From a virus: a stretch of DNA of 27,852 bases. Below the pieces are notes generated by a model. That model was not told where the DNA came from. It did not search any database and saw only the letters and a program-made list of their open reading frames with translations. This document shows, piece by piece, positions 1-21,016 of this stretch; positions within the stretch are counted from its first letter, which is position 1, and each line of letters begins with the position of its first letter. The stretch lies in the IMG/VR virus record IMGVR_UViG_3300017782_000155, positions 1-27,852 of that record, one strand, 5' to 3'. The position numbers and the translations under genes are program-made.

Positions 1-1018
1 CACTAACATTTTCATCCATTATGTGACTAAGCATAACATAAGAATCATCAAAGTCTACATTGCCACTGTTGTTAACTTCGCCTAGTAAATATTGTAGCGC
101 GTGTGTGAATGTATTTGCTGAACTACCCGGGCTAGCGCCTGCGCCGATAGCTTCTTTAAATACCAGGAAAACATCAGTTACAGTAACTACATCATCTAGC
201 CAATCAGAAGCCAATTCATTATCAACAGTAATGTTAATATCGTATTTAACATCGTTTTCTAAACCAGTTACAATAGCTTGAGAATTAGCATCAAAGTTGC
301 CACTCGCTACACTATTATTATTACTTAATATATCGTATTTATAATGTGTCGGTTTGTCATTCTCTGTTTTAAGATTTATAGTAACACTTCCAGCATCACC
401 ACCTTCAACGCCAGACAATGTTATTTTTTGTTGCATTGCGTCCACATCGTATTTTGTTAATGTTGAATTGTCTTCAGCTCTCATCCAGTTAAGATGTGTT
501 ACATTATTATAATTGCTGTAGTTAGTATTAATCTTATCCTTAATTTTAAAATCAACTTCAATTAAAGTATTGTTATATGTTATGCCTACACCATCTTGAA
601 TTGTTATTCTTTCTACTGACCAATCGTTATCTGTAGGGTATGAATTAGTATCTCCTTGTACTTGTGATCTGTTAAACCAACCGTGTAAATACTGAGCTGA
701 AAGATTGTCCTCATCATAAGTACTTAAAACTTTATACTTATAACCGTCCCAATGTGTTAACGATGTTTGCGCATTTGTGTTGGCTGAGTTGTCGGTTACT
801 TTAAATCTATGAGTAATCTTCTGTAACAATTTGTTATTGTATTCATAATCAAATATATACAAGTTAGGATCTACATCTTCTGTAACTTGTATTGTATTAA
901 ACTTTATTGTTATAGTATCACCAACCGCAAAATCTTCGGCGTTTGTATAACTGTGATCAAGTTTTAAATCTTGTGCTAAGCAGAATAATGGTAATAATAA
1001 AAACAATAATTTTTTCAT
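1..1018 (-). CDS. Exported protein with Fn3-like and dockerin-like regions (partial, runs off left edge)
   Basis: The frame is open from the ATG at 1018 to the window edge, giving 339 complete codons without a stop, so the C-terminus is missing. Residues 1-16 form a signal peptide (MKKLLFLLLPLFCLAQ) with likely cleavage before Gln16, as in Bacteroidetes secreted proteins. Residues about 18-200 are beta-rich and resemble cohesin-type folds, with phrases such as YIFDYEYNNKLL. Residues about 215-275 look fibronectin III-like and end in TGLENDVKYDINITV. Residues 313-325 (GEVNNSGNVDFDD) match a dockerin calcium loop, with Glu at position 1 and Ser at position 5 in place of the usual Asp. The start overlaps the stop of the upstream gene (ATGA, 1015-1018). 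It may be a surface-displayed or virion-decorating protein, but its role is unknown. The frame is certain; the function is weak. Confidence 0.8.
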   Translation of the reverse strand, partial: MKKLLFLLLPLFCLAQDLKLDHSYTNAEDFAVGDTITIKFNTIQVTEDVDPNLYIFDYEYNNKLLQKITHRFKVTDNSANTNAQTSLTHWDGYKYKVLSTYDEDNLSAQYLHGWFNRSQVQGDTNSYPTDNDWSVERITIQDGVGITYNNTLIEVDFKIKDKINTNYSNYNNVTHLNWMRAEDNSTLTKYDVDAMQQKITLSGVEGGDAGSVTINLKTENDKPTHYKYDILSNNNSVASGNFDANSQAIVTGLENDVKYDINITVDNELASDWLDDVVTVTDVFLVFKEAIGAGASPGSSANTFTHALQYLLGEVNNSGNVDFDDSYVMLSHIMDENVS

Positions 1019-1479
1019 AGTTTTAATTTCTTAATAATGTTTTCAGATAATTTTTTTAATGCAACGCTAACACTGTTTTGCGTGAACTTTCCTTGCTCAT
1101 TTAATAAAATTAAAGATGTAGTTATATCTTTTGACGTGCCTTTTACTTTTACTTTTTTCTTTTTGTATTTGGCAATAGCAATTATTTCGGTTTGACTCGA
1201 TGATTTGCTATACAACGCAATATTTGATTGAGTACGTTTCACATCAAAATAAATTAGTTCAACATCTAAAACATTTTCACTTCTATCATTTAAGTTATAA
1301 TCTTGATCTTGAACCACTTCCTCTAATATGTTTTTCAAACCAAACCCAACGTTCCTATTGCCAACCAAAGGACCAGTTTGAATTGAATTTTTTATATCGT
1401 TTATTTTAATATCTTGTGCAGATATTACAATGCAAAATAATAAACTACTTACTATCTTTATTCCTTTTATGTACTTCAT
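1015..1479 (-). CDS. Small exported protein of unknown function
   Basis: This is a 154-residue protein. Residues 1-22 (MKYIKGIKIVSSLLFCIVIS then AQ) form a signal peptide with cleavage likely before Gln22. The mature protein begins QDIKIND, close to the QDLKLDH of the next gene's mature form. The rest is mixed alpha/beta and ends in a basic amphipathic helix (residues about 138-154). The central strand DVELIYFDVKRTQSN and the later KKKKVKVKGTSKDITTSLI give a faint likeness to small periplasmic outer-membrane assembly proteins such as CsgG- or LptE-like families, but nothing diagnostic is present. Its first 35 bases lie inside the end of the holin-like gene, and its stop overlaps the next start by ATGA. 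It may act in the periplasm during lysis or modify the infected cell's surface; this is inference. Confidence 0.8.
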   Translation of the reverse strand: MKYIKGIKIVSSLLFCIVISAQDIKINDIKNSIQTGPLVGNRNVGFGLKNILEEVVQDQDYNLNDRSENVLDVELIYFDVKRTQSNIALYSKSSSQTEIIAIAKYKKKKVKVKGTSKDITTSLILLNEQGKFTQNSVSVALKKLSENIIKKLKL

Positions 1480-2341: not shown

Positions 2342-5300
2342 TTAATTGTTTTTAAATTTTTCATTGTATTCTTTTTCAAAAGCAGAGGCATCAAATCTCG
2401 TTGATTTTTGCTTTTTCTTTTTTCTCTTATCTTGTTTCCATTCTAGTTCCCATTTACTCCAACCTAAAATATTAGCAATTCGCATCCAATCAGCATTTTC
2501 AGTATCTAGCGCATCTTTTATATTGGTTAATTTTTTAATACCTCTATCAAGCGGAACGTTTGTTGTTGCACTAATTAATTGACCAATAGCTAAATAAGCT
2601 GGATTGTCTAATGCAAATCCTTTTTCTTTTATTTCTTTTTTATTCCAATCAAATGTTCTACCAGCCGATCTTACTTTTCTTATTTTAGATGATACTGGAG
2701 GGGATAAATTTATTAGTTCTAAAGCGGAATCCTGCATTGGTTTTCCTTCAGCTACTTTTAATATTGCATTTTTTAGAGTTGAAATTGCAGCACCATGGAA
2801 TCCAATACCTCTTAATAATGAGTCAGCCATACCGTTGGCAATATTTCCATATTTTTGTTTTTCTTTTTCATCTTCAGCTTCATCTCCAAAAGACAAAGCA
2901 AATAAGGCTTGTTGTAATGCATTGAATATAACATTTTGTATCATACCGTAATATAATATTTTTGATATATTACTTTTCGTGTCACCACGTCCGTTTTTAA
3001 GATCACTAGCAGCTCTTTGCATAATTCTAGCATATTGAGCTGGCGTATTAGCAAAAGCCAATATAATACGCCCTAATGGGCCAGCCTGCTGTTGGCTAAT
3101 TCTATCAGGCCTGCTTGATTGTTGTGATTCCTCTGCTATTTCTCTAAAATCTAAAAATGCTTTTTGCTCGGCATCTTTTTGGGGCATACCGTCTTTAACA
3201 TAAGATTTTACCCTGTTTCTATAAAATGTAGCGCCACCAGATGCAATAGCAAAACTATCCGCAATTTGTGTTGGTAAAAATCCTAATTTCAATAGTTTGT
3301 TTACAAAAGCTTTGGCTTTATTATCAGATTCAGCTGCTATTTCAGCAATATCAGCTTCATTAACGTTTATTTTTAAACCATTTCTTCTTTCAACTAAATA
3401 GTTTGAGTTCATTATGAACATTACGTCTTTCCAATATTGAGGCTGATTAGCAAATGCTGTTGAAGCTTTAAATATATTATTATCGTTCCAATTTATAAAG
3501 TTAACAGATGATATAGTTTGTAGCACCGCGGATCTCATATTAAAGAACATGATTGCCCCAACAGAGCCGTTAAGCCAATCTACAAATCTGGATGTTAATC
3601 TATCGTTACCAAATTTTCTATTGCTACCAGATTTCATGCGCTCAAGCATGTTTTCTAAAGCCATTTTATAGCCCTTACCATACGCTGCCTCAAGTTTATT
3701 TAAATTAGCTTCATTAAATATTTCATCAGCATTTGTTTGCCATTTAGATAAAGCTTGTTTTCTTGTAGTTGTATTTAATCCTTGTAATAAATCTGTTGAT
3801 ATTGTTCCTACAAGCCAATTTTTATCAGGCGCAGGGTATCCCTCTACATTAATAGCCGATAATTCATCAGCAAACTTTTTTAATTTTTCGTTTGATTCTA
3901 TATATTTATTTAATGTTTTCCCATCTGCTATTGATAGTCCCGGAACTTTTAAACCTTGTTTTGTCCACACATATGTTCTTAAAGCATCACTTACAGAATA
4001 TGGTTCTCCCGGTATTTTTTTCTTTAATTCTTTTGGTGCTATTTCAGCAATTTTTTTAATTTGGTTATATTTTTCAGCTAAAACAACTCTAGCTTGTGAT
4101 ATAGCCACATTGCCTTGAGCCCAAGGATCTAATAAATTTTCTTTTATCCAAGCAAGATGTTTATTCCCTTCTTTACCTTTACCAACAAATTTTCTTACTA
4201 ACCCTTCAAAATCTTGAGCGGATGGAGGTATACCAAGCATATCGTATTTACCTTTATCTTTGCCGACTATTGCAGCTTTTGATTGGCCGTATCTTTTTCT
4301 TGATTCAATTTTTGTAGAATTTTCTAAAATATCATTAAACTCAACATCTAAACTTTTCTTTTTATCGCTTTTACTTAATTTTGATTTTAAAGTTTTATAA
4401 TCGGTGCCTTTACTTTTAGGCTTACCCGCTAATGATAATTGAACAACTCTAGTCAAAGTTGTAAATTTATCAGTAGATTTTCCAGTTGATTTCCAACTAA
4501 CAGTGACTCTACTTTGCAAACCAGATTCAAATAAATCTTTACCACCAAATTTAGCAATATCTGAACCAATTCCCCAAACTCCAGCGGCTGTTCCATCTAA
4601 AAATACCATATATTCTAGAGGAATACCTTTGTTTTTACCCTTAGTAGTGTAAAAAGCTTTTACTAAATTTCCATAATCATTAAGAATTTCAGATTTAGAC
4701 TTAACCACCTCAAACAAACTATTTTGTTTATCTGTAATTACTTTTTTACCATTAATAAATTTTGGAAATTTAATTGTTGTGTCTCCCACAATAATTTCAG
4801 AATCTTTAAAACCAATTCTTTTTAAATCTTTAATAATATCATTTTTAATACTATCACTAAACTTTTTTAATTTATTAGCTAGCCCTTGAGGTAAAACACT
4901 GGTATCAATTTGTATAAAACTTCCGGTTCTATCAGTATGCTTAGTTTTAACTTCTATGCCAAATTTTATACCCTTGTATTCTATTTCAATATCTACTCCA
5001 GTATCACCAACAACTAGCTTTTCTAAATCTGGTTTATTTAAAATTTTTATACCTGGTAGTATTTTTTCTAATTTTTGAGCTAAAAATAATTCAGCAGCCT
5101 GTCCTGTTCTGTTTTTCATAAAATCTACAGGATCAAAATCTGGAAATTCTTTTTTAAGGACTTTAGCTTTATTCATAAATTCTTCAAAAGCTTCTTTAAA
5201 GTCTACTGTTTTAGATGCAAAAGTAGATATAATTTTACCAAACCCAGGTGATAAAATAACTTCTTCAGCTAATTGTTTTTTCTTTTTATTTTTTGAAAAT

Positions 5301-8300
5301 TTAGCCCCAACAGTTCGTTCAATTTTTCTAGCCACAGTAGCCTGCTCGTTTATATTTAATCCAGCAATTTCAAGAGCGGAAGGCGTCATATCAAACCCTA
5401 ACTGAACAGCTATACCTCTAGCTAAAGCATCTTTTCTTCCTCTTACTTTAAAAAATTCTTTAAATTGTTCTTTAGTAGGCCTTAGTCTATCATATAAATC
5501 TACCCCTTGAGCTTCATTTTCAACAAACGCTCTTCCTTCGTCTCGTGCTTTTCTTATGTCTGCTTGTTTTGTTAATCTTCTATTATATTTTGTAAATATT
5601 TTTTTGTCAGCCGGAACTAATTTTTCGGCTTGTATAAAAAATTGAATAGGCATATGATTAAGTATACTAGAGTATTCTTTATCTAAAAACGCGTCAAAAT
5701 CTTTCATTTGTGCTTTTACACTTTTATAAAGATTAGCCCCATAAGTTTTTACTAAAAAATTTCTAAACTTTTTATCGTCAATGCTAACTTCATCTAGTAC
5801 TACCGCATCGTAGACAACATCAAATATTTCTTGTGCTAATTCTGGCGTTACTATAGAGGTGTTTTCTTTTAGCTTAGATTTTGGTATTGATTCCTCCGTC
5901 TGCAACAAACTTTGATCAACCATATCTTCTATAGATTGACTATCTGTATCAACAACTTGTATAGTTGTAGTTTCCCCACCAGTTTGTTTTTCTATCGATG
6001 TAGTTTTAATCTCTTTAACATATTGTTCTTTAACATCTAATAATGACTTATACGCTATACCCCCTGTTCCTTTTCCTTTACTAGAGCCATATATATAACT
6101 AAATAAACTTCTTTTATTTCCGTCTACTGTTGGTTTGTAATTTTTTAAAACTCTGTCAGTAATTCTTTCTCTTATTTTTCTAAGAGCTTCTGATTGTATT
6201 TCTTTAGGTAATCCCCCTAGGTTTTTATCAGCAGCTATTAAGTTACTTAAATACCCATCCAGTATTTGATTCCCCTCAATTTCTTTATAAACGCCCGATA
6301 CAGCTTTATTATTTTTCTTAAAGTCATCTTGAGTTTTAATTTCTTCAGTAATGTAGCTATCTAGTGTATTAGACATAGAAGCTGTGCTAACCGATTTCTT
6401 TTTAATTGTTTGTTTTTTGTCAACTATTTCAACACCGTCTTTTGATGTAGTAATTTCGTAATTTAATAACTTGTTTTTCTTATTAACATTAGTATTAAAA
6501 TTTCTAATAAAATCTACTATATCTTTACCTGTGTTTAATTCAATTTTTGATTTACCAATTATATTATCAAAAGTATTTTTAAGAGATCTTTTAATACCAT
6601 CAATTTTACTTTCATCTAAATTAATTTTTTGTTTAGATATTATATCTGAAAATATAGTAAAATACTCTTCATTGGCCCCTTTTTTAAGTTTACCTGTTTT
6701 TTTATCAGTATAATTTTGAGTAATCCTACTTTCTATTTCTTTTAAAATTTGCGTCCCCTCTTCGCTTTTATTTAAATAATCTTTGAAAGAGTCCACTAAA
6801 GGCTGCATTGATGCGTCATTCACTTTAAAAGCTCTAGACATAACATAATGTAATAACTCATGTCCCAATACATTTGTTGATTCTGCTTCAGCGACCGCCT
6901 TTTTATTAATGAATATTTTAGCCTTACCTCCTGATTCATCTAAAAACATGCCCTCAGCTTTACCCATGCCTTCTGGTAAGTTACTTTCATTTACATAAGT
7001 TATATCTAAATCTTCTTTATTAACGCCTTTAAGCTTGTTTAATTTTTCAAAAACAATTTCACTATCTATAAGCGCTTCTGAAATTTTTCTATCATTCGCT
7101 GCATCAATTTCATTAAATTCCATTATATCAGCATTTTGCTGGTATCTTTTGTCAATTTCTTTTTTAACCTCTTCTTGGTGTATTTTTGAGTATTTATCTG
7201 ATCTTAAATCACCTTGCGATTCTCTAATTACATCCAAATTCTCACCGTATTGTATTAACTCAGTTTTAGTTAAACCATCAAGTTTGTTTTTTAATTTGTT
7301 TTTATGCTCAATAGACTGAGCCTCTAGCTTTTTAATTTTGTTTTCAAAAACTTTCTTTTTTCTTTTTGTTGGAGCCGCTTCTAAATCATTTTTAGCATTT
7401 ACTATTTGTTGATTAATTTTTAAATCTTCTTCTTTCCAAGACGCTGGTGCAATATATTCATATAAAGCGTCTTTATTTTGTGAAGTTTTAAATTGTGTTA
7501 TTACAGAACCTGTTGAGTTTACAGGGCCACCTAAAAAGCCACCAATAACAAAACTATTGAATATGTTTTTAAAATAAGCTGGGTCCTCATCAAATAATAA
7601 AGCATCACTTAGATCTTGAATATAACTATTTGCAGCTTCAGTCGCGCCTTCTTGTAAAAAGCCAACTGCCCCAGCCCCAATTACTTTTGCTGTTGCACCA
7701 AAAAATCCTTTTGTGAAATCTTCAATAGCTTTCTTTTTAGGGCCTTTGCTTAGGTTTTTAATCTTTCCTAATCCCTTAAAAAATTTACCACCCAAATATT
7801 CCGTTGCCCATTCTGATCCACCTTTTATTAAGGCAGAACCATATAATTCAGAAGCGGTTGCCCCCGGTCTATTTTTTAAATTTTCTCTAAAATCATTTCC
7901 AGAGGTAGATGCACCAAGTAATGCCCCGCCATATACTGGGTTTGCAATTGCTAAAGCTAAAGATGGAGCAGAAAAAGCGGCTTGACTTGCGGCTAAATCT
8001 GCAGCATCACCAATTCTTCCTGCGTATACTAAATCCTGTACATCTAATACATTACCTTCGTTATCGTATTTTTTTACACTTATTTCTTTTGCTAGATTCA
8101 ATTGTTCATACATTGGTTCTAGATCAATTTTATCACCATGTTTTCTTGCCCAATCACCCAAGCCTTCATCTATATCATCTGCTAAAGAAACCGTACTCAT
8201 AAGGTCTACCAAACCAGCAGGTCCAGTTGCGGCTATAATAGGAGAAGCTATCATGTCAATAGCATCAACAATACCTCCACCAATTTCCATAGTACCTATG

Positions 8301-8653
8301 GTTGCATTGTACATTTTTTCCTGGGCCCAATCTGGTAATAAACCAAATATGCTAGTTCCAGGGGTTGGCACACTGCCTATAGCATCAAAAGTAGCTTTTC
8401 TTTTTGCTGTATCTCTATTTTCTAAAGCTTGAGATACCGATAAACCAGGATCCGATTTGGACTCCATATCGGGTGCTAAAGTTTCCTCCACAACCGCACC
8501 CGGTGTTGTGGGAGTTTGAAAATCCTGCTCAACAGGATCTATTTGTTTTACTTCAGGATTGTTTTTTAAAAGCTCTTCTAAACTTATATTTCTTCTACTT
8601 GCTTCACCTTGTAATTCTTCTAAAGTAAGCTGCACTCCATTGTATTCAAACAT
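2342..8653 (-). CDS. Giant internal virion / polyvalent protein with metallopeptidase and nuclease-like domains
   Basis: This 2103-residue protein is probably carried in the virion and ejected with DNA, as with the large internal proteins of T7-like and marine podoviruses. Residues about 120-380 contain several Gly/Ala-rich hydrophobic stretches that could insert into membranes. Residues 410-510 are Lys/Glu-rich and probably coiled. A zincin metallopeptidase motif HELLH lies at 598-602. Residues about 1184-1250 match a PD-(D/E)xK nuclease layout: Glu1188, Asp1221, Glu1234-Val-Lys1236. Residues 1685-1925 form a helical region ending in AFANTPAQYARIMQRAASDL and hydrophobic helices, typical of the C-terminal part of large polyvalent phage proteins. 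The C-terminus is basic. It follows two smaller probable internal proteins with a six-base gap. Coding and class are strong; domain activities are inferred from motifs. Confidence 0.88.
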   Translation of the reverse strand: MFEYNGVQLTLEELQGEASRRNISLEELLKNNPEVKQIDPVEQDFQTPTTPGAVVEETLAPDMESKSDPGLSVSQALENRDTAKRKATFDAIGSVPTPGTSIFGLLPDWAQEKMYNATIGTMEIGGGIVDAIDMIASPIIAATGPAGLVDLMSTVSLADDIDEGLGDWARKHGDKIDLEPMYEQLNLAKEISVKKYDNEGNVLDVQDLVYAGRIGDAADLAASQAAFSAPSLALAIANPVYGGALLGASTSGNDFRENLKNRPGATASELYGSALIKGGSEWATEYLGGKFFKGLGKIKNLSKGPKKKAIEDFTKGFFGATAKVIGAGAVGFLQEGATEAANSYIQDLSDALLFDEDPAYFKNIFNSFVIGGFLGGPVNSTGSVITQFKTSQNKDALYEYIAPASWKEEDLKINQQIVNAKNDLEAAPTKRKKKVFENKIKKLEAQSIEHKNKLKNKLDGLTKTELIQYGENLDVIRESQGDLRSDKYSKIHQEEVKKEIDKRYQQNADIMEFNEIDAANDRKISEALIDSEIVFEKLNKLKGVNKEDLDITYVNESNLPEGMGKAEGMFLDESGGKAKIFINKKAVAEAESTNVLGHELLHYVMSRAFKVNDASMQPLVDSFKDYLNKSEEGTQILKEIESRITQNYTDKKTGKLKKGANEEYFTIFSDIISKQKINLDESKIDGIKRSLKNTFDNIIGKSKIELNTGKDIVDFIRNFNTNVNKKNKLLNYEITTSKDGVEIVDKKQTIKKKSVSTASMSNTLDSYITEEIKTQDDFKKNNKAVSGVYKEIEGNQILDGYLSNLIAADKNLGGLPKEIQSEALRKIRERITDRVLKNYKPTVDGNKRSLFSYIYGSSKGKGTGGIAYKSLLDVKEQYVKEIKTTSIEKQTGGETTTIQVVDTDSQSIEDMVDQSLLQTEESIPKSKLKENTSIVTPELAQEIFDVVYDAVVLDEVSIDDKKFRNFLVKTYGANLYKSVKAQMKDFDAFLDKEYSSILNHMPIQFFIQAEKLVPADKKIFTKYNRRLTKQADIRKARDEGRAFVENEAQGVDLYDRLRPTKEQFKEFFKVRGRKDALARGIAVQLGFDMTPSALEIAGLNINEQATVARKIERTVGAKFSKNKKKKQLAEEVILSPGFGKIISTFASKTVDFKEAFEEFMNKAKVLKKEFPDFDPVDFMKNRTGQAAELFLAQKLEKILPGIKILNKPDLEKLVVGDTGVDIEIEYKGIKFGIEVKTKHTDRTGSFIQIDTSVLPQGLANKLKKFSDSIKNDIIKDLKRIGFKDSEIIVGDTTIKFPKFINGKKVITDKQNSLFEVVKSKSEILNDYGNLVKAFYTTKGKNKGIPLEYMVFLDGTAAGVWGIGSDIAKFGGKDLFESGLQSRVTVSWKSTGKSTDKFTTLTRVVQLSLAGKPKSKGTDYKTLKSKLSKSDKKKSLDVEFNDILENSTKIESRKRYGQSKAAIVGKDKGKYDMLGIPPSAQDFEGLVRKFVGKGKEGNKHLAWIKENLLDPWAQGNVAISQARVVLAEKYNQIKKIAEIAPKELKKKIPGEPYSVSDALRTYVWTKQGLKVPGLSIADGKTLNKYIESNEKLKKFADELSAINVEGYPAPDKNWLVGTISTDLLQGLNTTTRKQALSKWQTNADEIFNEANLNKLEAAYGKGYKMALENMLERMKSGSNRKFGNDRLTSRFVDWLNGSVGAIMFFNMRSAVLQTISSVNFINWNDNNIFKASTAFANQPQYWKDVMFIMNSNYLVERRNGLKINVNEADIAEIAAESDNKAKAFVNKLLKLGFLPTQIADSFAIASGGATFYRNRVKSYVKDGMPQKDAEQKAFLDFREIAEESQQSSRPDRISQQQAGPLGRIILAFANTPAQYARIMQRAASDLKNGRGDTKSNISKILYYGMIQNVIFNALQQALFALSFGDEAEDEKEKQKYGNIANGMADSLLRGIGFHGAAISTLKNAILKVAEGKPMQDSALELINLSPPVSSKIRKVRSAGRTFDWNKKEIKEKGFALDNPAYLAIGQLISATTNVPLDRGIKKLTNIKDALDTENADWMRIANILGWSKWELEWKQDKRKKKKQKSTRFDASAFEKEYNEKFKNN

Positions 8654-8659
8654 AATATA

Positions 8660-9913
8660 TTATTTAAGTGTTTTTACTAACTGAGATGATGATAATAATT
8701 TACCATTAAGTAATTTCTGCACAGCGGCTTGGTCAGTTAAATCTATAGACATTGCTGGGGTATCATTAGAAGGATTGCCGCTACTATTTAATGTAAATAC
8801 TTTATAACCATCTTTAAATTTCATTATTTTAAATCCGTAAGGTCTATTTCTTAAATTATTTATTTCTTCAACAACGTTGGCATAATTAACAATTTTTCCT
8901 TTACCACCTAATAGATTTTTTGTGTGTCTTTCATATAATGTATCTACATAAGTTTTAATAGTGTCAACATTTTTATTTTCATTATTTTTCCCCTTTTCTA
9001 AAGACTGTATTTTTAACTGATTACTTAAGTCTTCTGATCTACTAATACCTTTATTTATAATTGATGGTCCAAGTAGATTTTTGTAATATTGTTTTAAAGT
9101 GCCATCTCTTTGTTTTTCAAAATCTATCATTCCTTCTTTTGCAATTCCACCACCAATATAGTTAGTATTTGCGACATCTCCGTATTGACTATCACCTTGT
9201 ATTTTATTTTTATAAGTCCAATGGGCTGAAGGATGCGAAATTAATTCCGTATCAATGTTACTGTCTATTATTTGATTTATACGTTCTTGACTTAATTTTC
9301 CTCCTAAAGTTTTTTGCTCTGATTCAATCGCTTCTTCAATTCGTTTTCTTGTGTTTAGATATGTTTGAGAATATTCTGCTTCAGAACCAGTCACAGGTTC
9401 GTTCTTTTTCATTTCTGCCATTATAACAGAAAGCTTAACACCATTTAAGGTTGGGTCATTATCTTTATCTAAAGCATATTTAGGATTATCTTCAATAGAG
9501 TCTATATATTTCATCATCTCCGGGTTATCTAATTCAATTTGCCCGTTTTTAACTTTACCAACTAATTCAAAAAAGTCATTACCAAAGTCAGCATTTTTTT
9601 GAAGTTTTCTAAGCAGCATTGCTTGCTTAGTTTTACTTTTTTTATCAAAAAATTCAGACCCAACATCTCTAGTAACCATCTCTCTCATTAAATCTTGATA
9701 GCCATCACTTAAGTATTCATACTTTGCTAAATCTTGTTCTGTTGTTAAAACCCAATTAGCACTAGATGCATCTCTTCTTATTTCTTCTTTTTCTCTATCT
9801 TGTTTAACTTTTTCGATAGTACCCGCTACTTGTCCAAACCCTTGTTGGAAAGCTTTTACTCCTGCTGTCATATCTTCGACGATACCGTATTGCTGTGGAT
9901 TTCTATAACTCAT
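8660..9913 (-). CDS. Putative internal virion (ejection) protein
   Basis: This 417-residue protein is mostly helical and charged, without a signal peptide or clear membrane span. The N-terminus (MSYRNPQQYGIVEDMTAGVKAF) leads into a probable coiled region (GTIEKVKQDREKEEIRRD, about residues 31-50). The middle is Glu/Lys/Asn-rich, and the C-terminus has a short beta-like stretch (YGFKIMKFKDGYKVFTLNS). No enzyme motif is visible. It lies between a Gly/Ala-rich 280-aa protein and the giant 2103-aa protein with 6-10 base gaps, matching the three-gene ejection-protein block of podoviruses (small, medium, large). That position is the main reason for the call; sequence identity to a named family is not recognised. 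Confidence 0.65.
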   Translation of the reverse strand: MSYRNPQQYGIVEDMTAGVKAFQQGFGQVAGTIEKVKQDREKEEIRRDASSANWVLTTEQDLAKYEYLSDGYQDLMREMVTRDVGSEFFDKKSKTKQAMLLRKLQKNADFGNDFFELVGKVKNGQIELDNPEMMKYIDSIEDNPKYALDKDNDPTLNGVKLSVIMAEMKKNEPVTGSEAEYSQTYLNTRKRIEEAIESEQKTLGGKLSQERINQIIDSNIDTELISHPSAHWTYKNKIQGDSQYGDVANTNYIGGGIAKEGMIDFEKQRDGTLKQYYKNLLGPSIINKGISRSEDLSNQLKIQSLEKGKNNENKNVDTIKTYVDTLYERHTKNLLGGKGKIVNYANVVEEINNLRNRPYGFKIMKFKDGYKVFTLNSSGNPSNDTPAMSIDLTDQAAVQKLLNGKLLSSSQLVKTLK

Positions 9914-9923
9914 ATTTTATTAT

Positions 9924-10766
9924 TTAATTAGGGCTCTCATAACTAGCCGGGGAGTTTGTTAAATTTTGAAAAAAACTAAAATCATCATTTGATTTATAAT
10001 TATAACCATAATTTTGATTTGGCGTTGCACCTAAGGTATTATTGCCACCGCTGGCGTTATTGTTTCCCGACCCAAAATTGTACATTAAATTTTTACCAAA
10101 ACTTCCTTTACCGCCAAATAATCCGCCACCAATAATACCTGCAGCGCTACCTAAAGCGGATCCAAACATTGATCTAGCTTGGTTGCCATAACCCGCGGCT
10201 TGTTGTCTAGCCCCGCCAGCTTGAGCAGATAAACGATCTAATTGTATATTGTCCCTAGACTCTTGTGCCCTAAATTTAAAAGCTTCGCCTTGTGCTTGTG
10301 CGCCTTGTACCCTTGCTGCTTCGCTCATTCTTAATTGTTGCATTCTTTGTTCCCCTTGAGCTCTTAATCTTGCATTTTGTGCTTCTTGTTTTTCAATACC
10401 AGCAGCAATCCCAGATTTTGATCTTGCAGCGGCTTGTGCTAAAGCAGTAGCCCCACCTGCTCCAGCGCCCGTGGCTCTTAATGTATCCAAGGTAGTAGCT
10501 AAACTAATATCTGCTTCAGCTCCTTGTATTTCTGCAGCTTTTGTTGCTACTTGCAAATTAGTAAATGGATTTGTAATCATTCCACTTAAATCTTTAATGT
10601 TTTCGTAAGGATTTATAACCTGTTGTCTATTAGCTTCAAAAGAACGTATTTTAGCTTCAAACTCTGCCGCTTGTTGCCTAGCTTTTCTAGCTCTTTTTCT
10701 AGCCCCAAAACCCCCAAAGATATTACTTATAAGGCTTACACCGGTTCCTATTAATGCTAAACTCAT
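9924..10766 (-). CDS. Putative internal virion protein, Gly/Ala/Gln-rich
   Basis: This 280-residue protein has a hydrophobic N-terminus (MSLALIGTGVSLISNIFGGFG) followed by a basic cluster (ARKRARKARQQ). A long Ala/Gln/Arg helical stretch (about residues 75-195) comes next, then a Gly-rich hydrophobic segment (about 200-225, MFGSALGSAAGIIGGGLFGG). The tail is low-complexity Asn/Gly (about 230-260). This layout is like the small ejected core proteins of short-tailed phages, which contribute to a channel across the host envelope. It directly follows the tail nozzle gene and precedes two larger probable internal proteins. No catalytic motif is present. The role is inferred from composition and gene order; the membrane helices would be the feature to test. 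Confidence 0.7.
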   Translation of the reverse strand: MSLALIGTGVSLISNIFGGFGARKRARKARQQAAEFEAKIRSFEANRQQVINPYENIKDLSGMITNPFTNLQVATKAAEIQGAEADISLATTLDTLRATGAGAGGATALAQAAARSKSGIAAGIEKQEAQNARLRAQGEQRMQQLRMSEAARVQGAQAQGEAFKFRAQESRDNIQLDRLSAQAGGARQQAAGYGNQARSMFGSALGSAAGIIGGGLFGGKGSFGKNLMYNFGSGNNNASGGNNTLGATPNQNYGYNYKSNDDFSFFQNLTNSPASYESPN

Positions 10767-19780: not shown

Positions 19781-21016
19781 TTAATAATTCTTAAGTTTAA
19801 ATTTTAGCTTAGAATTATCATCCCCAGAAATAGCTTTTACTTTTAATCCGCTAGTTTCAACATATCCACTAGAAGTTTTTCTAGGATCCATATTGATGTT
19901 CTTAGCTTCTGCACCCATTTGTTTGATTGCATCTGCTTTACCTTGTTCATAAAAATGGTTAGCTATTTTGTCAGGATTAGAAGCGGCAAATAAAGCTTTA
20001 TGGTAACCCCCGGCGTCCTGTAACATTTTATTGTTACCAACATATTTATTGAAAACATTCAATAAATCACTCTGAGTTTCCTTTACTTTGTTAACATCTT
20101 TTACATTGAAACGGTATTTCTTGTCTCCTACGTTGAAATTAAAACCTTTAAATTCTTCGCTAAAAACTTTACTAGTTTCCTGTTCAAAATGTTTTGTTTG
20201 CTGCTGTAATAATTCTTCAGCTGATTGTTGCTCTTTATTGTATCTGTCAAAAAATTCAATAGCTTTTTGCTGTTCAGGAGCTAATTTGGAACCCAACTTG
20301 ACTTCCTTATAGTATTTATCCTTAGTTTCATTTAAAAACTTATTGGCATTTGCGACTTCCTCTTTGAGAGCAAGTTTTTTTCTTTTAATATCTCTTTCCT
20401 CATCAATTTCTGCGTCAAATGAAAATTGATCGTCTAATAAAAACGATACTTCATCATAGCTTAAATGAGGTTTAGTTTGTTTATAGTATTCTCTTAATAA
20501 TGTATTTTCATCTACATTTGAATAGTCGGCACTAAGTCTGACATAGTCTTCAAGAGTTCCACCAGTTTCTTCCATAAATTTTACCAGGTCTTGTATGTTT
20601 TCTGGTAAGTTTACTTCTGGTTCTTGTGTTTTTTCTTCCTGTAATACTTCTTCAGGTTCCGGTGTGGCGTCGGGAGCTTCAATGCTTCCATCCACTCCTT
20701 CCTCTTCAGTATTATTTTTTTCATCTTCAATAATTTCTTCCAGTACAGGTTCTTCTACTTTTTCTTGCTGTACTTCTTGCAGTTCCACTTTGGCTTCTTC
20801 CCCATCTTTTTCATCTTCGCTGCTTCCGCGTAACACGCCATCTTCTGGGCTTTGTTTTTGAACGGCATCTGTTTCTTCTTTTGATTGATTAATTTTTCCT
20901 AAATCCACAGTGTAATCACCATCTTCGTTAGTTGATAGCTTTTGTACCTCTGCTTCTTTTTCAGCAATAGACTTTTCTTCGATGTCTAAAGCTTCTGCTT
21001 TGATGTTTTCTGACAT
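19781..21016 (-). CDS. Capsid scaffold protein
   Basis: This 411-residue protein is placed directly before the capsid gene. Residues 1-140 are extremely acidic and low-complexity (repeated Glu, Asp, Pro and Val, e.g. EEPVLEEIIEDEKNNTEEEG). Residues 140-310 are helical and charged with likely coiled coil (FLNETKDKYYKEVKLGSKLA, then EELLQQQTKHFEQETSKVF). The C-terminal tail is basic (KLKFKLKNY), as in scaffolds whose C-terminal helix binds capsid protein. No protease motif is present, so release would need another enzyme or non-proteolytic exit. Position, acidity and helical content together support the call. Confidence 0.8.
   Translation of the reverse strand: MSENIKAEALDIEEKSIAEKEAEVQKLSTNEDGDYTVDLGKINQSKEETDAVQKQSPEDGVLRGSSEDEKDGEEAKVELQEVQQEKVEEPVLEEIIEDEKNNTEEEGVDGSIEAPDATPEPEEVLQEEKTQEPEVNLPENIQDLVKFMEETGGTLEDYVRLSADYSNVDENTLLREYYKQTKPHLSYDEVSFLLDDQFSFDAEIDEERDIKRKKLALKEEVANANKFLNETKDKYYKEVKLGSKLAPEQQKAIEFFDRYNKEQQSAEELLQQQTKHFEQETSKVFSEEFKGFNFNVGDKKYRFNVKDVNKVKETQSDLLNVFNKYVGNNKMLQDAGGYHKALFAASNPDKIANHFYEQGKADAIKQMGAEAKNINMDPRKTSSGYVETSGLKVKAISGDDNSKLKFKLKNY

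What the first reader, a model, noticed from the sequence alone, without database searches (positions are those of the whole stretch)
6848..6862. HExxH metallopeptidase motif in the same giant protein
HELLH at residues 598-602 is preceded by a GKAKIFINKKAVAEAE strand-helix typical of zincin domains in polyvalent phage proteins. Together with the nuclease-like domain this makes a multi-enzyme ejected effector. It could cut host proteins early, or process virion proteins such as the scaffold, since no separate protease gene is seen.
Basis: partly seen in the sequence, partly recalled or inferred. Interest (0 to 1): 0.5.

Follow-up and report, generated by a model that had tools for sequence, protein, structure and literature searches.

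The report
Zinc-protease domain in giant phage protein
A giant protein of an uncultured short-tailed phage, probably carried inside the virus particle, holds a genuine zinc-protease domain of a kind already known from other many-purpose phage proteins, most likely used to cut the giant protein itself into working pieces.

Summary
The motif is real and exactly placed. HELLH (residues 598-602 of the 2103-aa protein, window 6848-6862, minus strand) is the only HExxH in the six frames. It lies in a conserved domain: 12 of 12 aligned viral sequences, 24-93% identical to the window's, keep ExTNxxGHExLH and, 55-81 residues downstream, EEY (E662/E663, candidate third zinc ligand). AlphaFold gives three strands, the HExxH helix and a helix bearing the glutamates, at modest confidence; structural matches are mostly zincin-fold proteins, also modest (best Z 6.5). 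Selection on the domain is strongly purifying (dN/dS 0.042). The setting, last gene of a virion operon, fits the published "polyvalent protein" metallopeptidases. So the zincin reading stands; cutting of host or scaffold proteins is untested, and I favour processing of the giant protein itself (inferred). Three relatives lack the module. In eight relatives a segment of the same protein resembles sigma-factor region 2; this is not shown for the window itself.

The parts
2342..8653 (-). Giant gene, 2103 aa, last and longest gene of the virion operon; multi-module protein
   Evidence: translation; portal, terminase and capsid genes upstream; relatives
6848..6862 (-). HELLH, residues 598-602: zinc-binding histidines and catalytic glutamate (by homology)
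   Evidence: HExxH kept in 12 of 12 relatives
6665..6670 (-). E662-E663 of the EEY motif: candidate third zinc ligand (which of the two is not settled)
   Evidence: invariant in 12 of 12; on the predicted helix 660-675
6614..7012 (-). Zincin core, residues 548-680
   Evidence: AlphaFold elements; dN/dS 0.042 against L002
6419..7156 (-). Segment aligned and modelled, residues 500-745
5279..6418 (-). Residues 746-1125, directly after the zincin; in eight relatives the corresponding place holds a sigma-region-2-like segment, which is not detected in the window
4394..5278 (-).
   Evidence: 58% identity and dN/dS 0.222 against L002; mean identity to nine other relatives 0.07-0.1 over most of 1151-1400
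2429..4396 (-). C-terminal module, residues 1420-2075, shared also by the relatives that lack the zincin
   Evidence: 74-75% identity in L003, L004 and L005; dN/dS 0.047
8660..9913 (-). 417-aa gene directly upstream of the giant gene; same order in relatives
9924..10766 (-). 280-aa gene, Ala/Gln-rich, upstream of the 417-aa gene; same order in relatives

Best explanation
The 2103-aa protein is the large internal (cargo) protein of a short-tailed Bacteroidota-type phage, built of swappable modules. Residues about 548-680 form a zincin-type metallopeptidase domain: zinc held by H598, H602 and E662 or E663, with E599 as general base. The most likely job is to cut the giant protein itself, in the head or after delivery into the host, freeing the modules on either side. 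Shown: motif, conserved domain, selection, gene position. Predicted: fold. Inferred: zinc binding, activity, packaging, delivery, and self-cutting. My odds: zincin-type domain 0.92; active peptidase given that 0.8; self-processing as main job 0.5.
For: HExxH and EEY invariant in 12 of 12 sequences down to 24% identity. dN/dS 0.042 for 548-680 against 0.147 for the whole protein and 0.222 for the variable module (window against L002). Predicted strands 549-554, 568-571, 578-583, HExxH helix 595-609 and EEY helix 660-675 match the published core of polyvalent metallopeptidases: three strands, a helix with HExxH, a later helix with a Glu (PMC5512222, passage). phrog_87 'metallo-protease' matches 6 of 6 scanned members, best E 8.3e-5. 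VIA-align rows are mostly zincin-fold proteins, best Z 6.5; viral library hits include polyvalent and virion-RNAP proteins, best E 7.4e-4. Profile match to the zincins in the giant proteins of elemo and ctfjg026, P 1.5e-5. Operon position and order small/medium/giant in 12 of 14 loci. Precedent for self-processing: P1 DdrB (PMC5512222, passage).
Against: No experiment. AlphaFold mean pLDDT 56 and only 57-64 around the HExxH helix; no coordinates were available, so zinc-site distances were not measured. No Foldseek PDB match with E <= 0.001; VIA Z values below 8 can arise from common arrangements. No Pfam match for the window's domain. phrog_87 also rings in 13 of 14 control genomes, so it is a broad profile. 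L004 and L005 lack the zincin yet keep the protein in one piece, so cutting is not needed in all relatives. N4 virion RNAP has such a domain but is packaged uncut (PMC5512222). Panino and phi38:1 giant proteins at the same place have no HExxH.
Confidence: 0.5

Rival explanations
1. The zincin is an effector in its own right: delivered with the DNA, it cuts one or more host proteins early in infection.
For: Published discussion allows host-targeting for polyvalent metallopeptidases (PMC5512222, passage). The module is optional: absent from L003, L004 and L005 although these share the C-terminal module at 74-75% identity, as expected of a host-specific effector.
Against: No target is known. The zincin core is among the slowest-changing parts (dN/dS 0.042), unlike an effector in an arms race.
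Confidence: 0.27
2. A true zincin fold that no longer cuts, or whose cutting is incidental, and that serves packaging or folding of the giant protein.
For: The metallopeptidase region of N4 virion RNAP is needed for encapsidation though the protein is packaged uncut (PMC5512222, passage).
Against: HExxH and the EEY glutamates are invariant in 12 of 12 sequences while the rest falls to 24% identity, as expected for catalysis.
Confidence: 0.13
3. The zincin processes other virion proteins during assembly, such as the scaffold (window 19781-21016, 411 aa).
For: No S78 or ClpP-type prohead protease in 12 records.
Against: Relatives L003, L004 and L005 lack the zincin in the giant protein, and no phrog_87 or A4 match was found anywhere in the records of L003 and L005, although they belong to the same group. 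These records may be fragments.
Confidence: 0.07
4. Chance HExxH in a coiled or helical stretch, no zincin.
For: No Pfam hit and no PDB sequence relative.
Against: Conservation, selection, fold prediction and profile matches; chance 0.245% from shuffles alone.
Confidence: 0.03

Closest known systems
Zincin-like metallopeptidase (MPTase) domains of polyvalent proteins (Iyer et al. 2017, PMC5512222; passages read)
   Same: HExxH helix plus later helix with conserved Glu behind a three-stranded sheet; inside a giant multi-module phage protein coded next to virion genes
   Different: No named polyvalent partner domain found by Pfam or PHROGs in the whole protein; could not be assigned to one of the paper's 12 clades, whose alignments are not held
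N4 virion RNA polymerase MPTase region
   Same: Relative L025's zincin matches phrog_2206 (virion RNA polymerase) at profile 2029-2205, E 0.013; an N4-like virion RNAP is in the viral fold list, E 2.3e-2
   Different: No RNA polymerase module was found in the window's protein
Phage P1 DdrB
   Same: Large phage protein with an MPTase domain and a processing precedent (PMC5512222, passage)
   Different: Not compared by sequence here; the DdrB-like ParB domain was not seen in our Pfam scan
Cargo proteins of the crassvirus PhiCrAss001 (PMC10172136, passages read)
   Same: The window's 1081-aa gene matches the crassvirus muzzle family, PF25731, 40 bits over a cut-off of 27; large internal proteins delivered through a short tail are shown for that phage
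   Different: The text holds no 'zincin', 'protease' or 'metalloprotease'; no sequence comparison of the cargo proteins was made
Giant proteins of Flavobacterium phage elemo (gp18) and of phage ctfjg026
   Same: Same operon place; zincin with HEIFH or HEFGH, profile P 1.5e-5; elemo gp18 residues 533-708 match window residues 232-397 at 30% identity
   Different: 3694 and 3859 aa; the elemo protein has DUF3293, ctfjg026 has two HEFGH sites

Membership tests
Zincin-like metallopeptidase (fold level) | HExxH on a helix | tested here: met
   motif; helix 595-609, pLDDT about 57-64; 12 of 12
Zincin-like metallopeptidase (fold level) | Third ligand on a later helix | tested here: inconclusive
   EEY glutamates invariant in 12 of 12 and on predicted helix 660-675; distances not measured as no coordinates were available
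Zincin-like metallopeptidase (fold level) | Three-stranded sheet before the HExxH helix | tested here: met
   predicted strands 549-554, 568-571, 578-583
Zincin-like metallopeptidase (fold level) | Structural similarity to solved zincins | tested here: inconclusive
   VIA-align rows mostly zincin-fold, best Z 6.5 over 156 residues at 4.6 A; no Foldseek match with E <= 0.001
Polyvalent-protein MPTase | Domain lies in a large protein with several unrelated modules | tested here: inconclusive
   Modular swapping between relatives is clear, but no second enzyme domain was identified in the window's protein
Polyvalent-protein MPTase | Coded with virion genes (phage type) | tested here: met
Polyvalent-protein MPTase | Assignment to one of the 12 published clades | not testable with these tools
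   the paper's supplementary alignments are not held
Polyvalent-protein MPTase | Protein packaged and delivered to the host | not testable with these tools
   needs virion proteomics; phi38:1 gp101 at the same place is annotated 'structural protein', basis not seen
Peptidase_M78 (ImmA/IrrE-like) | Match to PF06114 above its cut-off | tested here: inconclusive
   4 of 6 members at E <= 1, best 8.4e-4, none for the window's own segment; unrelated families score nearly as well, e.g. T2SSF 0.0016
Sigma70 family, region 2 (relatives only) | Region-2 sequence and fold | tested here: inconclusive
   For eight relatives: 5 of 8 PDB sequence hits are sigma factors, best E 0.025; hhalign P 1.1e-4, probability 57%; 46 of 50 VIA rows are sigma factors, best Z 8.4. 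Against: no Pfam sigma hit and no Foldseek E <= 0.001
Sigma70 family, region 2 (window) | Region-2 sequence | tested here: not met
   HMM of the relatives' segment does not hit the window's protein; profile comparisons P 0.27 and 0.37

The most novel reading that the evidence does not exclude
In this phage group the giant virion protein couples a self-processing zincin to a sigma-factor-region-2-like module: on delivery the zincin frees a piece that binds host RNA polymerase and turns it to the phage's first promoters, doing with a borrowed polymerase what N4 does with its own virion polymerase. Eight relatives show the sigma-like segment (six of them with the zincin, two without); the window would carry a diverged or replaced version.
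Probability: 0.15. Interest if true: 0.8.

Novelty: new member of a known kind. Interest (0 to 1): 0.42.

Why it matters
It places a metallopeptidase in the large, probably delivered protein of a widespread but little-studied group of marine Bacteroidota-type short-tailed phages that carry a crassvirus-type muzzle gene. Isolated relatives (elemo on Flavobacterium) have a related zincin in the syntenic giant protein, so self-processing against host-cutting can be tested at once by virion proteomics. If the sigma-like segment seen in relatives is borne out, it would be a polyvalent virion protein that carries a transcription-redirecting part, a role so far described for virion RNA polymerases.

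Tried and rejected
Chance motif: rejected by conservation and selection. Direct hits of the whole protein in Pfam, PHROGs, PDB and the phage collection: none useful; the zincin segment alone had no match in the phage collection at E <= 1. Scan of 84,980 cellular genomes with alignment A1: 39 stretches matched a pattern, none confirmed; this scan finds only fairly close relatives. PDB sequence searches with A1 and A4: nothing relevant. A multiple alignment with the elemo and ctfjg026 zincins was too loose to place their third ligand.

Separate prohead protease: S78 0 of 12, ClpP-type 0 of 12; S77 0 of 12 but controls silent, so no conclusion.

Sigma-like module in the window: not borne out. The HMM of the relatives' 330-aa region, built without the window, meets the window only at residues 903-1097, E 9.6e-4 for a nominal 10,000 sequences, i.e. 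mostly after the sigma-like segment.

Rows dropped: L020 was left out of the zincin alignment because the stretches printed are the same as L019's; L009, L015, L021 and L022 are the same contigs as L002, L016 and L017 fetched again. L003, which has an insertion in the segment, was left out of the sigma-like alignment. In one search the script picked a wrong ORF for L027, and L026 lacks the upstream stretch; both count as misses in '12 of 14'. L025 was not among the 14.

Papers: the Cellulophaga phage proteomics paper I recalled (PNAS 2013) is not held. Literature searches for a virion or polyvalent protein with a sigma-like domain: (listings; passages of PMC2147016 and PMC7824862) gave none; 'sigma' does not occur in the text of PMC5512222.

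Full report
Observation. The minus-strand ORF 2342-8653 encodes 2103 residues. HELLH is at residues 598-602, window 6848-6862, and no other HExxH occurs in the six frames; residue shuffles of the protein contain one in 0.245% of 20,000 trials.

Setting. The window is a 27,852-base virus record. Reading along the minus strand it holds a terminase large subunit (phrog_6681, E 5.6e-166), a portal (phrog_6547, E 1.2e-151), a 411-aa gene in scaffold position with no PHROG match, a virion protein in capsid position (phrog_13704, E 3.9e-98) and a 1081-aa protein with the crassvirus muzzle family at its N-terminus (PF25731, 40 bits, cut-off 27). Then come 414-, 280- and 417-aa genes and the giant gene. 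The portal's best phage-collection matches are phage ctfjg026 (53%), Maribacter phage Panino (47%) and Flavobacterium elemo phages (42%), hence 'Bacteroidota-type'; the host itself is unknown. A small gene (180-290 aa), a medium gene (417-634 aa) and the giant gene follow each other in 12 of 14 loci examined; phi38:1 has the same run, gp99-gp101, with gp101 annotated as structural protein (basis of that annotation not seen). That this trio is a packaged, delivered set, like the internal proteins of other short-tailed phages, is inference.

The domain. Iterated scans of viral contigs found relatives of the HELLH region. In 12 sequences (window, L002, L016-L019, L023-L028), 24-93% identical to the window's, the invariant columns include E-x-T-N-x-x-G-H-E-x-L-H and E-E-Y....S-D. 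From first His to first Glu of EEY is 64 residues in the window and 55-81 in the set (positions). Between the window and L002, dN/dS is 0.042 for residues 548-680, 0.147 for the whole protein, 0.047 for the C-terminal module and 0.222 for residues 1126-1420.

Fold. AlphaFold on this 12-row alignment gives strands 549-554, 568-571, 578-583, the HExxH helix 595-609, further helices, and helix 660-675 carrying E662/E663; mean pLDDT is 56, 68-74 over residues 550-589, 57-64 around the HExxH helix and 78-83 from 620 to 669. This is the layout published for polyvalent metallopeptidases (PMC5512222, passage). Foldseek against the PDB has no match with E <= 0.001. VIA-align's list is mostly zincin-fold proteins, best Z 6.5 (4.6 A over 156 residues); many of its top rows cover chain residues below 251 of the lethal-factor or Certhrax chains, while the catalytic part of lethal factor appears at ranks 15, 18, 21 and 38 (Z 5.7-4.4). 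Small zincins and an SprT-type protease score 5.3-6.1, and some rows are unrelated (alpha-glucuronidase, baculovirus capsid proteins, an AB5 toxin). In the viral model library the best hit is an uncharacterised 1475-residue viral model (E 7.4e-4), followed among others by a 'large polyvalent protein associated domain' protein, an ART-PolyVal protein and an N4-like virion RNA polymerase.

Profiles. phrog_87 (metallo-protease) matches the window's segment at E 8.9e-4 and 6 of 6 members scanned, best 8.3e-5; it is a broad profile that also rings in 13 of 14 control genomes. Among 12 records it hit 8, once each, always within an open frame of more than 2000 residues. Pfam gives nothing for the window's segment; Peptidase_M78 hits 4 of 6 members weakly. 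L025's zincin touches the virion RNA polymerase family phrog_2206 (E 0.013). The A4 profile finds only its own members in 12 records (6 of 12), but profile-profile comparison joins it to the zincins of elemo gp18 and ctfjg026 (P 1.5e-5, probability 80%).

Modularity. L003, L004 and L005 share the C-terminal module (74-75% identity to the window's) but have no HExxH. The giant proteins of Panino and phi38:1 have none either. In L003 the C-terminal module is a separate ORF overlapping the preceding one by 20 bases, which may be a real split, a frameshift or an assembly error. L004 and L005 lack the zincin and are unsplit, which tells against cutting being essential.

Mechanism. I commit to a zinc peptidase that mainly cuts its own polypeptide. 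The reasons are precedent (P1 DdrB, PMC5512222 passage), a low dN/dS unlike that of a host-targeting effector, and modules on both sides that swap independently. Against it stand N4, whose protein is packaged uncut (same passage), and the unsplit zincin-less relatives. Host cutting is the main rival. Scaffold cutting is unlikely because close relatives do without the zincin.

Side finding. In eight relatives (L016, L017, L018, L019, L023, L025 after the zincin; L004, L005 without zincin) a 115-aa segment resembles sigma-factor region 2: 5 of 8 PDB sequence hits at E <= 10 are sigma factors, best E 0.025; hhalign against four E. coli sigma factors gives P 1.1e-4, probability 57%, on region 2, while the zincin alignment as control gives P 0.54 and the longer 330-aa alignment only P 0.0065, probability 6%. 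In VIA-align 46 of the 50 rows listed are sigma factors, judged by title, best 3.0 A over 90 residues, Z 8.4. Against: Pfam finds no sigma match, Foldseek no E <= 0.001 with sigma chains only at ranks 7 and 29 of the 50 rows shown, and helical models often reach such Z (tool note). The window's own protein does not show the segment. It is reported as a lead, and the novel reading rests on it.

Novelty. The zincin is a new member of a known kind. No paper on a virion or polyvalent protein with a sigma-like part turned up in three full-text searches.

Noticed in passing
L016 8487-8831 (+), and matching segments of L017, L018, L019, L023, L025, L004, L005: Segment of the relatives' giant virion protein resembling sigma-factor region 2 by sequence profile, profile-profile comparison and predicted fold; not detected in the window.
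   Followed up: partly
L003 8902-12909 and 12890-15094 (+): Giant gene split into two ORFs that overlap by 20 bases, at the border of the C-terminal module; real split, frameshift or assembly error not decided.
   Followed up: no
L006 8229-13718 (-), Panino CDS0069: The syntenic giant protein of Panino carries a stretch matching phrog_4752 (tRNA methyltransferase), E 1.7e-16, residues 381-599.
   Followed up: no
L007 741-12320 (-): The 3859-aa protein of ctfjg026 has two HEFGH motifs; the second lies in the segment that contributes to the zincin profile match, the first has no PHROG hit at E <= 0.1.
   Followed up: partly
window 4394-5278 (-): Residues 1126-1420 are the fast-changing part of the giant protein: 58% identity to L002 against 93-94% in the zincin segment and C-terminal module.
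   Followed up: partly
window 2-1018 and 1015-1479 (-): Two genes after the giant gene begin with what looks by eye like a Bacteroidota signal peptide; a relative of the first is in L005 15670-17295.
   Followed up: no
L002 17228-18949, L005 20902-22623, L016 14256-15998, L017 13762-15504 (-): By eye a ribonucleotide-reductase-like gene of 573-580 aa on the opposite strand downstream of the giant gene in these relatives.
   Followed up: no
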